Source of the DNA: Volutella citrinella
Taxonomy: Eukaryota > Ascomycota > Sordariomycetes > Hypocreales > Nectriaceae
Assembly (NCBI GenBank): GCA_034401135.1
Contig: JAWZSP010000003.1
Location: forward strand, 3,720,001 to 3,784,000
Direction of reading: 5' to 3'
DNA: 64,000 bases
The notes below the pieces were generated by a model. The model made no database searches. It was not told the origin of the DNA and worked only from the letters and a program-made list of their open reading frames with translations. This document shows positions 17,478 through 24,222 of this stretch, one piece after another. Numbering within the stretch: position 1 is the first letter of the stretch; each line of letters opens with the position of its first letter. Position numbers and translations under genes: made by a program.

Positions 17478-17917
17478 CGCTCTTATGCCGTTTTAGGACG
17501 GGCGGCTATGATGAGGCCGCATTTCAAATCCATGGATCCTTCCGCCAACTTATTAATTTCTTACTATTGGCTGTCACAGCTGGCCGTTGCGTCTGGAATA
17601 CATCCATCAAGAGCACTGCCTGGCCGCTTCCAGACCCGTGCGTCCCGCGCATGACCCTCAAAGCCTGCGCAAGATGATCTCGGCCTGGCTGCGAATCAAT
17701 GCGGAATTTTAACTTATGCTCGCTCTAGTTCAGGCACCAGCCTAGTAGTAGAAACCATCAAGCTTTGCGGCCTTCTGCATTCGGCTTGGCGCCTTTATTT
17801 TGCTTCCAAGTCGGTCAGCCCCAACAAGGTTTCATCTCGGTGTTACCTGAGACACGCGGCAAATCTATGGGAAGTTTAGATAAAGGTCTACTTGCATATT
17901 CCATAGGAAGTGCAGAT

Positions 17918-17940
17918 AAACGCTGCATCCTGACTGACTA
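17918..17940 (+). repeat. 23-bp direct repeat, copy 2
   Basis: Exact second copy of the 23-mer at 17455-17477. It sits immediately before the first GAATTCC-rich 59-bp repeat. Confidence 0.85.
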
Positions 17941-17946
17941 TAGTTT

Positions 17947-18064
17947 CAGTCTTCTATTCAGAATTCCGGGATGAATTCCAGGGGAACACTAGAAGAACCC
18001 TCTTCCAGTCTTCTGTTTGGAATTCCGGGACGAATTCCAGGGGAACACCGGAAGAACCTTCTTC
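17947..18064 (+). repeat. 59-bp direct repeat, two copies, GAATTCC-rich
   Basis: Two adjacent copies start at 17947 and 18006, 59 bp apart. Each has CAGTCTTCT, then a GAATTCC motif, then GAATTCCAGGGGAACA, then GAAGAACC. They differ at several positions. Similar GAATTCCG motifs recur at the opposite end of the island (24602-24700). Confidence 0.8.
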
Positions 18065-18109
18065 CAAGCTTCCGCTTGGCAGGGGTAAGAACCAGTAGTA
18101 TTCCTGAGC

Positions 18110-18770
18110 CTGGGACAGTTACTTAGAGAGGTCGTCCACAGGATGACGTGAGTGTTCCTGGGACAGTTGCCCAGAGAGGTCGTCCACAGGATGACCAGAG
18201 CCTTCTTAGGGCAGTTGCTCAGAGAGGTCGTCCACAGGATGATGTGAGCGTTCCTGGGACAGTTGCCTGCCTTCCTGGGACAGTTGCCCAGAGTCGTCCA
18301 CAGAATGACCTGAGCCTTCCTGGGATAGTTGCCCACAGTTGTCCACGGAATGACCAGAGCCTTCCTAAGGCAGTTACCTAGAGAGGTCGCCCATAGGATG
18401 ACCAGAGCCTTCCTAGGGCAGTTACTCAGAGAGGTCGTCCACAGGATGACGCAAGCGTTCCTGGGACAGTTGCCTGCCTTCCTGGGATAGTTGCCCAGAG
18501 TCGTCCACGGAATGACCTGGGACTTCCTAGGACAATTGCCCAGAGTCATCTATGTAATGATGGGCCTTCCTAGGACAATTGCCCAGAGTCGTCCACGGAA
18601 TAACCTGGGACTTCCTAGGACAATTGCCCAGAGTCGTCCACGGAATAACCTGGGACTTCCTAGGACAATTGCCCAGAGTCGTCCACGGAATAACCTGGGA
18701 CTTCCTAGGACAATTGCCCAGAGTCGTCCATAGAATGACCTGAGCCTTCCTGAGGCAGTTGCCTGCCTGG
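18110..18770 (-). repeat. Minisatellite of 45/48-bp units, about 14 copies, open on the minus strand
   Basis: Tandem units contain CGTCCACRGAATGACC and CAGTTGCCCAGAG variants. Units spaced 48 bp start with GAGAGGTCGTCC (18126, 18174, 18222). Others lack the AGG and are 45 bp. Three copies at 18601, 18646 and 18691 are identical over 45 bp. Unit lengths are multiples of three, so the minus strand reads continuous 15/16-residue units such as GNCPRKSQVIPWTTL. A minus-strand ORF with a true ATG runs 18549-17989 (186 residues); a second open stretch covers 18802-18527 in another frame. No signal peptide, known domain or promoter is evident, so translation is unproven. Confidence 0.9.
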
Positions 18771-18929
18771 TATACTATCAGTTTTGTTATGTGTTGGCGC
18801 ATGCTCCTTCCTAGCAGCCAAGACGCGCCTGGAAGAGCCGCACCTGCTCCTTCCCTATCGACTTCACAACAGAAGTATCGAGAAGAACTGTGTCTGTTCC
18901 TTCCCAGTAGACTTAGGAGAGAGAAATAC

Positions 18930-19330
18930 AGAAGACCGTGGCTGGATCTGAACTTTCATCCTCTTTATTCTCCTCCATCCCCAAGCTCTGCAAGATCCTC
19001 CAGCTTCCCCGTCTCCTCCAGATCAATAACGGTGTGTTCATCAAGGTCACCAAGGCCATCACACTTTCATCTTCCTCATTCTTCACCCATCTCCAGGCCC
19101 TGCAAGATCCTCCAGCTTCTCCGTCTCCTCCAGATCAACCACGGCGTGTTTGTCAAGGTCACCAAGGCTACCACACTTTCATCTTCTTTATTCTGCATCT
19201 ACCCCCAAGCCCTGCAAGATTCTCCAGCTTCTCTGTCTCCTCCAGATCAACAACGGTGTGTTCATCAAGGCCACCACGGCCACCAAGGCCAACCAAGGCC
19301 ACCACAATTTCATCTTTCTCATTCTGCATC
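18930..19330 (+). repeat. 112-bp tandem repeat, three copies, in the leader of the GIY-YIG ORF
   Basis: The segment TGCAAGATYCTCCAGCTT recurs at 18989, 19101 and 19213, exactly 112 bp apart. Each is followed by CTCCTCCAGATCAA and a CATCAAGG/GTCAAGG stretch. The array ends just before the first ATG of the downstream ORF. Degenerate TGYTCCTTCC-containing repeats lie further upstream (about 18805-18940). Confidence 0.85.
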
Positions 19331-19347
19331 CACAAATCTGTATTGTG

Positions 19348-20820
19348 ATGATGGCTGCAACAACAATCCTGTCTTTCCTTTTACACCTGACCTGGGCATG
19401 CCTATGTGCATCGCCTACTAAGAGCGCACAGTTCACGGAGTTCTTTTCATCCTCTGAAGTTCTTGAGCAGACAGCAGCACTGGTCACTTTTTCATTCTGT
19501 ACTGGACTTCTACACATTCTCCAAGCGGCAACACCACCAACAATTGACTTCTTTGAAAATCTTCCCTTACCGAAAAAGAAGCAATGGGGCATCTATGTAC
19601 TGGTGTACAAAAGAGCTGGCGCGATTCCATTAATCTACATCGGCTCTGGAACATCTGTCCATGGTGTTTTAACTAGGCTGAAGAATTACCGCACACCGCA
19701 TCAAGCAAACGTCGCAAGATACATCCTCAAAGCGATCTCTGATGGGTACACTCTCACAAACGCCGGGGTATTACTCTCATGTCCAATTCCGCATTTGTTG
19801 CTACTCCCCAAAGTCCGGATGTTATTCCTCGCTCTTGAAGCAACTCTCGCATTTGTTTTCTGGGCGATGAAGTCTGCAACAAAAGACTACGGAATTGAGA
19901 GTTCCTGGCAACTATGGGAGAAAGACTCATTCACATACGGCGGTTTGTGCTCGCACAGTGCATTACTCGAAGGGGTCAGAGGCCTCGACCTTTCAGAAGA
20001 AGAACTGAAAAGGATCACGAAATCGAAAAAACAAGCATTACAGCAATACCAGAAGAAGTACGTTCAGAATCTCACTGAATCGAGAAGACAAGAATTACGC
20101 CAATACCGCCAGAATTACGGCAAGAAGCTCCGCATCAATAATCCTGCACTTGTGCACGCCCGAGACCACAAGCGAACACCACAGAAGGTTGCAGCAGCAA
20201 GGCGTCGAGCGCAATCCGCCAGATTGGCGAAGACATTTCACTGCATGGTCTGTAATAAGAGCTTTGGAACTAAGCGCACCTTGCAACGACACTTCGGCGG
20301 GCCAAGACACCGACAAATTACTGGCAAGCAAGAGACTGATTCCCAACGAATCTATCGCCAAACTCACAACAAGACGCACGTCCGATCTGCTCAGCGGACA
20401 AGGGCATCGGACAAATTCCGATGTAATACATGCAAACGGGGCTTTGCATGTGCGCGGGACCTTAAGACCCATCTCCGCGGCGTCAAGCATGCGAAAGTTG
20501 AGGCACAGAAGCACATGACACAGGCGGAAAGGGACGTCGCCAAACGCCTGCATGACAAGAAGAGGAAGCAGAAAAGCCAGGCAAAGACCAAAGCTTCCGG
20601 AAAGTTTCGGTGCCAGGACTGTGAAAAGAACTTCCAAGACAACAGGGCACTGCAGATCCATTTCCAAGGGGTCGTCCATAAGAGAGTTGTCGACAATGCC
20701 AAACAGGGGCATACTCCCAAATTCCGATGCGAGCCATGCTCTGCTAATCTTGAGACGAAAGCAAGCTTTAACCGCCATTTACGGTCAAAGAAACACCGAA
20801 ATCAAATGGACAAAGAATGA
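19348..20820 (+). CDS. GIY-YIG endonuclease-domain protein with four U1/C2H2-type zinc fingers (probable mobile-element protein)
   Basis: The frame is open upstream, but the first ATG after the 112-bp repeats is at 19348, giving 490 residues in one exon. A hydrophobic N-terminus (TTILSFLLHLTWACLC) is followed at about residues 80-170 by a GIY-YIG-like domain: WGIYVLVYK, PLIYIGSG, an Arg-bearing LTRLKNYR, and LFLALEATLAF, whose Glu could be the metal-binding catalytic residue. A basic helical segment (SKKQALQQYQKKYVQ) leads to four fingers spaced C-x2-C-x12-H-x5-H: FHCMVCNKSF, FRCNTCKRGF, FRCQDCEKNF and FRCEPCSANL. GIY-YIG domains cut DNA in homing endonucleases, UvrC/Slx1 and Penelope-like elements. 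No reverse transcriptase is visible here. It sits in a repeat-rich island beside retroelement debris. Function in mobility is inference. Confidence 0.82.
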   Translation: MMAATTILSFLLHLTWACLCASPTKSAQFTEFFSSSEVLEQTAALVTFSFCTGLLHILQAATPPTIDFFENLPLPKKKQWGIYVLVYKRAGAIPLIYIGSGTSVHGVLTRLKNYRTPHQANVARYILKAISDGYTLTNAGVLLSCPIPHLLLLPKVRMLFLALEATLAFVFWAMKSATKDYGIESSWQLWEKDSFTYGGLCSHSALLEGVRGLDLSEEELKRITKSKKQALQQYQKKYVQNLTESRRQELRQYRQNYGKKLRINNPALVHARDHKRTPQKVAAARRRAQSARLAKTFHCMVCNKSFGTKRTLQRHFGGPRHRQITGKQETDSQRIYRQTHNKTHVRSAQRTRASDKFRCNTCKRGFACARDLKTHLRGVKHAKVEAQKHMTQAERDVAKRLHDKKRKQKSQAKTKASGKFRCQDCEKNFQDNRALQIHFQGVVHKRVVDNAKQGHTPKFRCEPCSANLETKASFNRHLRSKKHRNQMDKE

Positions 20821-21109
20821 GATATTGACAAACTGGTCTGTATCATTTGACACTTTTTACTTTGCTACATTGCATTGGCGTTGGCATGGAGGGCCAGGAA
20901 GGGGGATTTTGCGACGGAAATGGTTTACTGGGGTAAAACATGGAAGAAAGACTACTCATCCCGCGATGTACACAGACTGAGCTCAGCAGATAGCCAGAGA
21001 TAATAGAGATTTACCTTGCTTCAAATGAATAGGGTGCAAAGTCTTCCAGATGATCCTCCTTCCTTGGGAACATGGAATAGAGCGCCGAGGAATGGAGAAA
21101 TGCCCTAAT

Positions 21110-21960
21110 GACCGAGCTGAAAAGATGCAATTGGGGAACTCCGAAAGAAATCATCTCAGACAGGGACCGCAAGTTTACTTTGGAATTTTAGCGTAGAATG
21201 TGGAAGGCATTCGGAACCAAGGTGAGATACACTACTGCCTACTACCTGCAAGCAGAGAGGCAGTCCGAAAGGACCAACCAGACAGTGGAACTGGGTATAT
21301 TATGGATCACCTGGAATAGGATTGGACAGAAGCGCTGGTACCTACTGTATCGCTTTTACTTCTTGACCGTTATATACCACAGCTATCGGGATGACCCCGA
21401 CGGAACTTGTGGTAGGCTTCCGTCGTGACGGAGCATTCCTGACGCTAGGACATTCCAACGCCGTCGGCAGACAGAAGGAACTCCAGGACCAAGCAAGGCT
21501 GTGCATCGCCTGCCGCCATGAAGGCCCGGTAGGACAGAAAGCATTATACCAAACCGAGGGACTGGGTATAGCTGAAGCTCTCCAAGGATAGACAGCGTTG
21601 CCGACGCACTGCCCAATAAGCTGAAGGAATGACGGACTGCAATGTATAAAGTACTGCAACGAGTCGAACACCTTGGAGATAACCGACAACTCCACCCGGT
21701 GGTGTCCGTAGCACACCTGAAGTTGACGGAAGCACCGCAGGCGAGACCCGAACTAGTGCTAGTGGAAGGAGACGACTCGTCTCGGTGGCGGGAAGACTAC
21801 CAGCACTAAGAGGTAGGTCGGATCGTTGTTAATAAAGGACGTCTGGGGACTCAAGTCGAACGGAGTATCTTGTCGTCTGGAAGGGCTGGCTGAGGAACTA
21901 TAACATATGGTTAGACGAGGAAGCCATCAACGCAGATAAAAAGATCAGGGAATACCGTGG
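21110..21960 (+). pseudogene. Relic of Ty3/Gypsy (chromovirus) integrase with chromodomain
   Basis: Fragments in order on the + strand match a Gypsy integrase core and C-terminus: TPKEIISDRDRKFT, then a TAG stop, MWKAFGTKVRYTTAY, QSERTNQTVELGI, HPVVSVAHLK near 21700, and a chromodomain-like EYLVVWKGW...WLDEEAI at 21863-21959. Frame changes and stops break it. Several differences from the family pattern TAYHPQxDGQSERTNQT (H to Y, P to L, G to R, W to stop) are C-to-T or G-to-A changes, as expected from repeat-induced point mutation. No gag, protease, RT or LTRs were recognised nearby, so it is a 3' fragment. It is a genomic fungal retroelement remnant, not a functional gene. Confidence 0.82.
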
Positions 21961-22416
21961 AAGAACAAAGGAGAAGGAAGACCTTCAGAGGACAGAGGCA
22001 GGAGGGCCTGCCCTCATTTTCTCAGAAGACAGCAGACTCAACTGGAACGCAGATCGAAGTGGCTGGAGCACACCACTATGCCGCAGTAAAAAGAGGATAG
22101 GGCAGGCCTTGGAAGGATGCAACCCATAGACAACCCGACAAGGACAAGAATAAAGAGGCGGAATCAGAGGCGATGAGACGACCTACTCGCATCACAGGGA
22201 CTCGGGGGCGCAACGAGATGAGCCATCCATTGGAATTCAATCGGAAGACGGACGAAAGAATCTTCCGGTGAATTCCACTGGAGGACCCACCAACGGCTGT
22301 CAGAAGACGTGAGGGGGGGGCAAACACGCGGTTGCCCAGGCACCCAGGTGACAACAAGCGGGGCAATAACAATTCCCCCGCGTACCACAAAAACAACCGT
22401 CACCCGCACCCTCAAT

Positions 22417-24222
22417 ATGCCTGACATAGGGCCCTTCGATATTCCAATCTGCACCGAACGCTTCCTGTCCAGGGATCCTCAATTCCGAGTGGCCTTCTCC
22501 GACGTACTTAGTACAAAGAAGGCAGCACTTGCTTACGACGGCTACAGAAGAGCCCTTGAAATTTACGGCAACGAGAACGGTATACTCAAGTCCGAACGTT
22601 CAGGCCACTTCGCAGAGTGGAAAAGAAACAACAAGGAAGTCCTCAAGGCGTGGAGACAGCGCGCTGACGTAGAGGGATACAACTGGCTCGAAGGACACGC
22701 CGAACCCAGAGCCGGAGTCTACCATTGGATTAGCCCCTCTGACCCGCGATACCAGTCTGCACATCTCACGCCTCGCACAAACCCTTTCCGTGACCGCACT
22801 TTCAGAACTCCCCACGGCACCCCTCGCCGCGTCGCACAACTGCAACGCGACATTCTGACTTCCGCCGAGACGCCGACCCGAAGATCCACTGCCCGAAGAC
22901 GTATCCCCACGTTTTCCTCCAACACACATCTACAGTCTTACGACTCTGACGAAGAAAGCAAGGCCGAGAGTAGCGACGAGGAAGACTTCCCCCCTATCCT
23001 TTCCCCGCTGGAATTCCCAACCTCGACACGATCAAACGCCACGATGCCACCCCAAGACCGAGCCCAAGTGCGCAGCACCCGAGGACGTTATGTCGCCGTC
23101 AACAGCGAGGTCAAATCCGCCATCGAGCAGATGGAAGGCCTCATAGCACCATCCGCGAACGACATCAATGGGACTTCCGTCGGAGCAGCCGAGGCCTCCG
23201 TCCTGCTCGCCGGAGCTATCGAAAGCCTGGTCCGAAATCGTGAGAAGAACAAGTCCACCGCATAGGAAAAGGCGGAACAACTTCTTCAGGTCTTCGACGG
23301 AAGTAAGGGCATGCGACGATTTGTCGACGTTATCCAGTCACAGGTCGGTACCATCGATGTCCCGGACTCTCCCCCACTCGGGTCAACCCTCAAGAACCGA
23401 GGATCTCCTGTGGGAAGGAACCTCGGGGACCCTGTTCCATTCCGTCTGCCCAGCGCCAGCGCTACCAACGTCCTCCAGGGGACAGACGCCGATGTCTTCA
23501 AGACTCCGAATAACAAGCGCAAGGACAACCCATTCCTTGTTATGTCCGAGAAGCGCGCCCGGGTCGCCGCCGTCACCGCCAGCAAGCGAGCCAACCTGGA
23601 CACCACGAACCTGAAGAAGTACCCCATCGTGGTTGGAACCCAGATCACTAGCAACAAGCAGGAATTCTATGTCCATTGCGTGATCTTTGGCAACGAGGCC
23701 ATGCCCTTCCCGAACCAGGAAACCGCCACAGCTTTCGGAACCTTTGTCGAACACTGCCGCGAGAAGACCAGCCGCGGAATCACGCTGAAGCAAGTGGCCA
23801 AGTACGCTGGCCTTGATCCCAACCTGGTGGTAGAAATGGACTTCACCCACTTCATCCCTCGCGAAGACGAACCTTGCTTCATGGACACGGTCCTGGCCAT
23901 GCGCCAGCACCGAGCGCTCCACAGCGGCGAGGACTTCCAGAACCATTTGCTGGACTGCACTGACATCAACATCGCCAATGAGTGGGACCCTCTGCGCCTG
24001 CCGCCTTGCGTCTTCCCCCGACAGGACGGCAAGGGAGTCGGGGTCGTCACGGGTGAACCAGTGGCGGTTGCAGTCACTGCCGCCGGAATTCCCACCGACA
24101 TGCGTCCCATGCGCGAGGAAGACTGGGGCGTCCCGAACTGTTACGTCGCCGAGACCCTTCGCTCTAAGGACTGGAAGCAGTACCTCGAGAAGGCCGATCG
24201 ACATGGCGCTGACGCCGCGTGA
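22417..24222 (+). pseudogene. Unrecognised ORF interrupted by a single in-frame TAG (candidate mobile-element protein)
   Basis: I do not recognise this protein. The frame starts at ATG 22417, is open to a TAG at 23263-23265, and continues in the same frame from 23266 to a TGA at 24220-24222. Without the stop it would be 601 residues. The first part has RRALEIYGNENGILKSER, YNWLEG, a Thr/Arg/Pro-rich middle and an acidic patch (DSDEESKAESSDEEDF). The second has a basic nuclear-signal-like NNKRKDN and a compact domain with KYPIVVGTQIT, EFYVHCVIFGNEAMPF, LKQVAKYAGLDP and EEDWGVPNCYVAETLRSKDW. No zinc knuckle, protease or polymerase motif is seen. A short intron removing the TAG does not work: the 50-bp GTGAGA..TTCAG option breaks frame. 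It may be a C-to-T nonsense mutation, or two genes, or readthrough. Confidence 0.6.

What the first reader, a model, noticed from the sequence alone, without database searches (positions are those of the whole stretch)
19348..20820. Intact GIY-YIG nuclease domain fused to four U1-type zinc fingers
The sequence shows GIY...YIG strands, an Arg helix and a Glu-bearing helix at about residues 80-170, then four fingers with uniform C-x2-C-x12-H-x5-H spacing. GIY-YIG domains are known in homing enzymes, Slx1, UvrC and Penelope-like elements. A stand-alone GIY-YIG with a C-terminal array of U1/matrin-type fingers is not a combination I can name. The ORF is intact amid decayed repeats, which suggests recent arrival or selection. 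It could be the endonuclease of an undescribed mobile element.
Basis: partly seen in the sequence, partly recalled or inferred. Interest (0 to 1): 0.75.

Follow-up and report, generated by a model that had tools for sequence, protein, structure and literature searches.

The report
Fungal nuclear homing endonuclease gene
The gene encodes an I-TevI-like DNA-cutting enzyme with zinc fingers from an uncharacterised fungal family whose members often sit inside essential nuclear genes, apparently within ordinary introns, which suggests that cell genomes may carry self-spreading introns of a kind recently reported in giant viruses.

The parts
19348..20820 (+). Intact ORF, 490 aa, GIY-YIG homing-type endonuclease with four zinc fingers
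19348..19578 (+). N-terminal helical region (residues 1-77), conserved in the family
19579..19962 (+). GIY-YIG nuclease domain (residues 78-205), on the I-TevI catalytic domain; Y83 Y97 G99 R110 E164
19963..20241 (+). Lys/Arg-rich, mostly helical linker (residues 206-298)
20242..20310 (+). Zinc finger 1 (residues 299-321)
20422..20490 (+). Zinc finger 2 (residues 359-381)
20611..20679 (+). Zinc finger 3 (residues 422-444)
20728..20796 (+). Zinc finger 4 (residues 461-483)
18979..19062 (+). Copy 1 of an exon piece of ribosomal protein L7 (uL30), 94% identical to the live gene at G000:C4:3945698-3945781
19093..19174 (+). Copy 2 of the L7 exon piece (91%)
19202..19285 (+). Copy 3 of the L7 exon piece (94%), in the reading frame of the endonuclease ORF

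Best explanation
The ORF is an intact, free-standing member of a fungal nuclear homing-endonuclease family. The GIY-YIG domain would cut a conserved coding sequence; the basic linker and the U1-type fingers would give target specificity; repair from the copy that carries the gene would carry it into the empty allele. Where a host can be traced, the gene rides inside a conserved nuclear gene, apparently within a spliceosomal intron, so the host protein is still made after splicing. Lineages keep to a host gene and cross between fungal classes. The window copy belongs to the Hsp70-associated lineage but now lies outside any host gene I could find, next to three pieces of a ribosomal protein L7 exon, possibly a former or ectopic target. 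Shown: ORF, domains, fold, family, junctions in gene models, tree pattern, L7 pieces. Inferred: cleavage, homing, splicing of the gene-bearing introns, history and activity of this copy.
For: Fold and catalytic residues as in I-TevI. 18 of 89 homologues carry host-gene sequence: Pfam confirms it in the 12 scanned here, the precomputed Pfam column in the other 6. In 4 of 18 (P0080, P0086, P0088, P0089) both host halves flank the nuclease, with 1 to 9 host residues unaccounted for, compared by eye with this genome's genes. Recurrent sites: Hsp70 KKR|TFTT region in Alternaria, F. decemcellulare, Botrytis and Aureobasidium; CPSase MIN|YNPET in Neocucurbitaria and Neonectria; aconitase EY(F/H)| in Cosmosporella and Zymoseptoria. 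In the window's own genome, of 12 gene-sites, 4 have a plain short intron at the break and 2 within two codons (56-164 bp, GT-AG or GC-AG, read from sequence without transcripts); 6 are uninterrupted. On the nuclease tree (87 rows) host gene changes 6 times for 7 states, the minimum; 0 of 2000 label shuffles reach 6 (mean 10.25). Fungal class changes 9 times, and all 2000 shuffles do as well or better. The window copy is in a starred 22-row clade (99/97) with all six Hsp70-hosted members and no other known host.
Against: All host junctions come from public gene models; no DNA of a nuclease-bearing site was readable, so its intron borders are not seen. A predictor that wrongly joins neighbours would also use real donor sites, so the 14 one-sided models are weaker than the 4 two-sided ones, and I computed no chance rate for breaks falling on introns. 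The C. tanaceti ATP synthase model may be such an error: the related copy here lies within about 2.6 kb downstream of Atp1, not in it. The window copy has no host gene around it that I could find and no splice borders that I could establish. The Hsp70 link rests on about 215 residues; 15 other rows of that clade have no known host, and 35 of 84 inner branches of the tree are weak. L7 pieces lie on one side only.
Confidence: 0.8

Rival explanations
1. A host nuclease gene family with an ordinary cellular role (repair or RNA processing); the fusions with housekeeping genes are gene-prediction errors that join neighbours.
For: Junctions are known from gene models only; 71 of 89 homologues show no recognised host part; the copy near Atp1 in this genome is a neighbour, not an insert.
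Against: Four models hold the nuclease between two nearly complete halves of one host gene; break points recur in different classes; hosts are few and highly conserved; the host label fits the nuclease tree with the fewest possible changes.
Confidence: 0.1
2. Endonuclease of a transposon (Penelope-like or other), dispersed by transposition.
For: GIY-YIG domains occur in Penelope-like elements (recalled; also in the listing); the copy sits among repeats. Two 16-nt, 81% inverted pairs bracket the ORF (I10, I11), not tested against chance.
Against: DNA searches with flanks of three of the four loci did not hit the other loci; no direct repeat of 14 nt or more brackets the ORF in 18700-21500; no reverse transcriptase domain in the Pfam columns of the 89 homologues.
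Confidence: 0.05
3. The family homes, but the window copy itself is a stray or fossil, or serves something else.
For: No host gene; the other three loci here are truncated or broken.
Against: 490 codons open, core residues and all 16 zinc ligands kept.
Confidence: 0.35

Closest known systems
Spliceosomal homing introns ('shintrons') of mirusviruses (PMC12768974; abstract, search passages and section 9 seen)
   Same: Homing-type endonucleases, GIY-YIG among them, inside spliceosomal introns of key genes, with target-gene preference
   Different: Those are viral; here the apparent hosts are essential fungal nuclear genes, and the protein has a conserved N-terminal region and a U1-type finger array. 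A scan of IMG/VR by one short peptide pattern found no relative
I-TevI and other GIY-YIG homing endonucleases of group I introns
   Same: Catalytic domain fold and core residues
   Different: No Rfam match up to E 1 in 17.5-23.0 kb; the DNA-binding part is a row of four U1-type fingers
Nuclear relic of a mitochondrial GIY-YIG homing endonuclease in Ustilago maydis (PMC7593156; abstract and section list seen)
   Same: GIY-YIG homing gene in a fungal nuclear genome, interrupting a gene
   Different: A single, apparently inactive mitochondrial transfer; here a large family with host-gene pattern
Slx1 structure-selective nuclease
   Different: Much weaker match; no U1-type finger array (recalled)

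Membership tests
GIY-YIG nuclease superfamily | GIY and YIG strands, catalytic Tyr, Arg and Glu in the fold | tested here: met
Homing endonuclease genes | Gene inserted in a conserved target gene, with filled and empty alleles at the same site | tested here: inconclusive
   Relatives: yes at the level of gene models, 18 of 89 with 4 two-sided, and uninterrupted sites in this genome, compared between species. Window copy: no host gene found
Homing endonuclease genes | Site-specific cleavage and super-Mendelian inheritance | not testable with these tools
   needs bench work and crosses
Spliceosomal homing introns (shintrons) | Endonuclease ORF between spliceosomal donor and acceptor of the host gene | tested here: inconclusive
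   Break points meet plain introns of this genome at 6 of 12 gene-sites (4 at the break, 2 within two codons); DNA of filled sites not available
Group I / group II introns | Self-splicing ribozyme around the ORF | tested here: inconclusive
   No Rfam match up to E 1 in window 17500-23000
Penelope-like elements | Reverse transcriptase in the same ORF as GIY-YIG | tested here: not met
   No RT domain in the ORF by Pfam, none in the Pfam columns of 89 homologues

The most novel reading that the evidence does not exclude
Cell nuclei carry spliceosomal homing introns: a GIY-YIG/zinc-finger endonuclease family spreads among filamentous ascomycetes by homing into conserved coding sequence of essential genes, is removed by the host spliceosome, moves between fungal classes along host-gene lines, and leaves plain introns behind when the ORF is lost, so it is a source of new nuclear introns.
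Probability: 0.6. Interest if true: 0.92.

Novelty: new variant of a known kind. Interest (0 to 1): 0.84.

Why it matters
How nuclear introns are gained and spread is a long-standing question. A homing nuclease in spliceosomal introns would give a direct, testable route in cells, with filled, plain and empty sites to compare. It would also be a natural selfish element in essential nuclear genes, and a source of nucleases aimed at conserved coding sequence. Nine literature searches, of which I saw the listings, showed the idea only for mirusviruses; that library is open-licence PubMed Central without bioRxiv, so print elsewhere is not excluded.

Tried and rejected
Pfam and PHROGs did not name the nuclease domain; the PDB sequence search gave mainly zinc-finger chains; Foldseek on the full model showed fingers and noise in the listed rows. 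Scans of viral and prokaryote contigs, one short peptide pattern each, confirmed no relative (11 and 12 stretches matched). I asked whether the copy near Atp1 is inside the neighbouring NAD(P)H-hydrate dehydratase gene: it is downstream of it. I looked for pieces of the 18 fused proteins beside the window copy: none, and nothing convincing against this genome's Hsp70 intron (best E 0.14); the L7 pieces came from the DNA search instead. Pieces beside the C2 copy come from a gene that I do not recognise as housekeeping. N-terminal extensions of ten homologues hold no Pfam host domain. Fungal class as an explanation of the tree was tested and rejected. Inverted repeats: 15 pairs in 17-24 kb, two 16-nt pairs bracket the ORF; direct repeats: none brackets it.

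Rows dropped: P0005, P0075, P0076, P0078, P0079 as near-duplicates by my judgement, before the tree; the C1 fragment was never put in. P0044 was not counted as fused because only its name says carbamoyl-phosphate synthase. The structure alignment left out the fused models and some near-duplicates (63 homologues used).

Names Ssa/Ssb, Ded1 and pyruvate carboxylase for hosts are my reading and recalled; Pfam gives HSP70, DEAD/Helicase_C and Biotin_carb_N. Fungal classes of the species are recalled. Notebook entry 5 holds rougher intron lengths; one search has the right ones.

Full report

The family. Three protein searches gave 89 distinct homologues. Twenty-seven bear a species name, all filamentous ascomycetes (taxonomy recalled); most of the rest are unnamed metagenome proteins. 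Eighteen of the 89 are gene models joined to a conserved nuclear gene: aconitase (P0006, P0021, P0033, P0040, P0052, P0055), Hsp70 (P0069, P0072, P0086-P0089), carbamoyl-phosphate synthase (P0046, P0083), and one each of ATP synthase alpha (P0020), a DEAD-box helicase (P0080), clathrin heavy chain (P0031) and a biotin carboxylase (P0036). Nine carry only the N-terminal host half, five only the C-terminal half, four both. In those four the insert of 332-385 residues sits between host halves that meet with 1 to 9 residues unaccounted for (compared by eye): for example ...ILVATAVAA [nuclease] GLDIPNVTHV... in the helicase of Fusarium nematophilum, where the window's genome reads ...ILVATAVAARGLDIPNV... 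without interruption.

Sites. Break points lie in conserved stretches and recur: the Hsp70 KKR|TFTT region in four species of three classes, Hsp70 KK|DL in two paralogues of two species, CPSase MIN|YNPET in two, aconitase EY(F/H)| in two and IG|QWDR in two. I read the same twelve gene-sites in the window's genome. A plain intron stands at the break in four (Atp1 56 bp, Hsp70 KKR 164 bp, CPSase 67 bp, aconitase PK|D 56 bp) and within two codons in two more (Hsp70 KK|DL of one paralogue, 66 bp, GC-AG; aconitase NM|GA, 58 bp). Six are uninterrupted (helicase, the other Hsp70 paralogue, two aconitase sites, biotin carboxylase, clathrin). These introns are my reading of the sequence, without transcripts. 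So three states seem to exist: nuclease-bearing, plain intron, empty. I have no chance rate for a break falling on an intron, and a predictor that joins neighbours would also pick real donors; the two-sided models carry the argument.

Tree. On 87 nuclease domains the host gene, known for 18 rows, needs six changes for seven states, the minimum; none of 2000 label shuffles does as well (mean 10.25, lowest 7). Fungal class needs nine, and all 2000 shuffles do as well or better. Lineages follow their target gene, not their carrier, as expected of homing with transfer between species. Caveat: 35 of 84 inner branches are weakly supported.

The window copy. It lies in a starred 22-row clade (99/97) with all six Hsp70-hosted members; the 15 other rows of that clade have no known host. 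It is one of four loci found in this 45.1-Mb genome (the search gives lower bounds). The others are truncated or broken: C5 keeps the nuclease domain but no fingers in its frame, C2 is a 165-codon stretch without fingers, C1 is a fragment with a stop. The C5 copy falls with the ATP synthase-associated protein of Colletotrichum tanaceti and the long-branched C2 copy (100/94) and lies within about 2.6 kb downstream of Atp1, with an NAD(P)H-hydrate dehydratase gene between. The link to the gene persists where the copy is not inside it; this also weakens the C. tanaceti model as an insertion.

Ribosomal protein L7 pieces. Sixty-two bases before the start codon ends the third of three 82-84-bp copies of an exon of the 60S ribosomal protein L7 gene, 94, 91 and 94% identical to the live gene on C4, which Pfam and PDB searches identify. 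The third copy is in frame with the ORF, a one-in-three chance. No L7 sequence was found after the ORF, and the live L7 gene has no intron there. Since the relatives with a traceable host sit in such genes, L7 is a candidate target or former home; filler copied during break repair would leave the same.

Mechanism, shown and inferred. Shown: domains, fold, family, junctions in models, tree pattern. Inferred: that the protein cuts an uninterrupted allele, that fingers and basic linker read the target, that repair copies the gene in, and that the spliceosome removes it from host mRNA. Mirusvirus introns with GIY-YIG and other endonucleases, named shintrons in 2025, are the precedent; their authors state that no such link with spliceosomal introns had been observed before (PMC12768974). 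I found nothing in print for cellular genes in the listings of nine searches of an open-licence library.

Limits. Gene models can err, and reads across a filled site are needed before calling it a shintron. The window copy may be active, or a stray.

Noticed in passing
window 18952-19332: A 112-bp tandem repeat whose units hold a ribosomal protein L7 exon piece, three full copies and a fourth partial one (41 nt at 19292-19332), next to the endonuclease gene.
   Followed up: partly
window 18109-18763: Array of 45-66-bp tandem repeats without a match elsewhere in the DNA search, which skips common words.
   Followed up: no
window 21100-21430: Broken stretch that reads by eye like a Ty3/gypsy integrase core; part of 20830-20972 has a 93% match at C1:1480855.
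   Followed up: no
L005 4485-5546 (-): Second family copy within about 2.6 kb downstream of Atp1, just downstream of an NAD(P)H-hydrate dehydratase gene; no fingers in its frame.
   Followed up: yes
L019, reverse complement 2239-2304: GC-AG intron (66 bp) in an Hsp70 gene at a family insertion site.
   Followed up: partly
L006 6191-8467 (+): Single-frame cytochrome P450 fused to FAD/NAD/2Fe-2S reductase domains.
   Followed up: no
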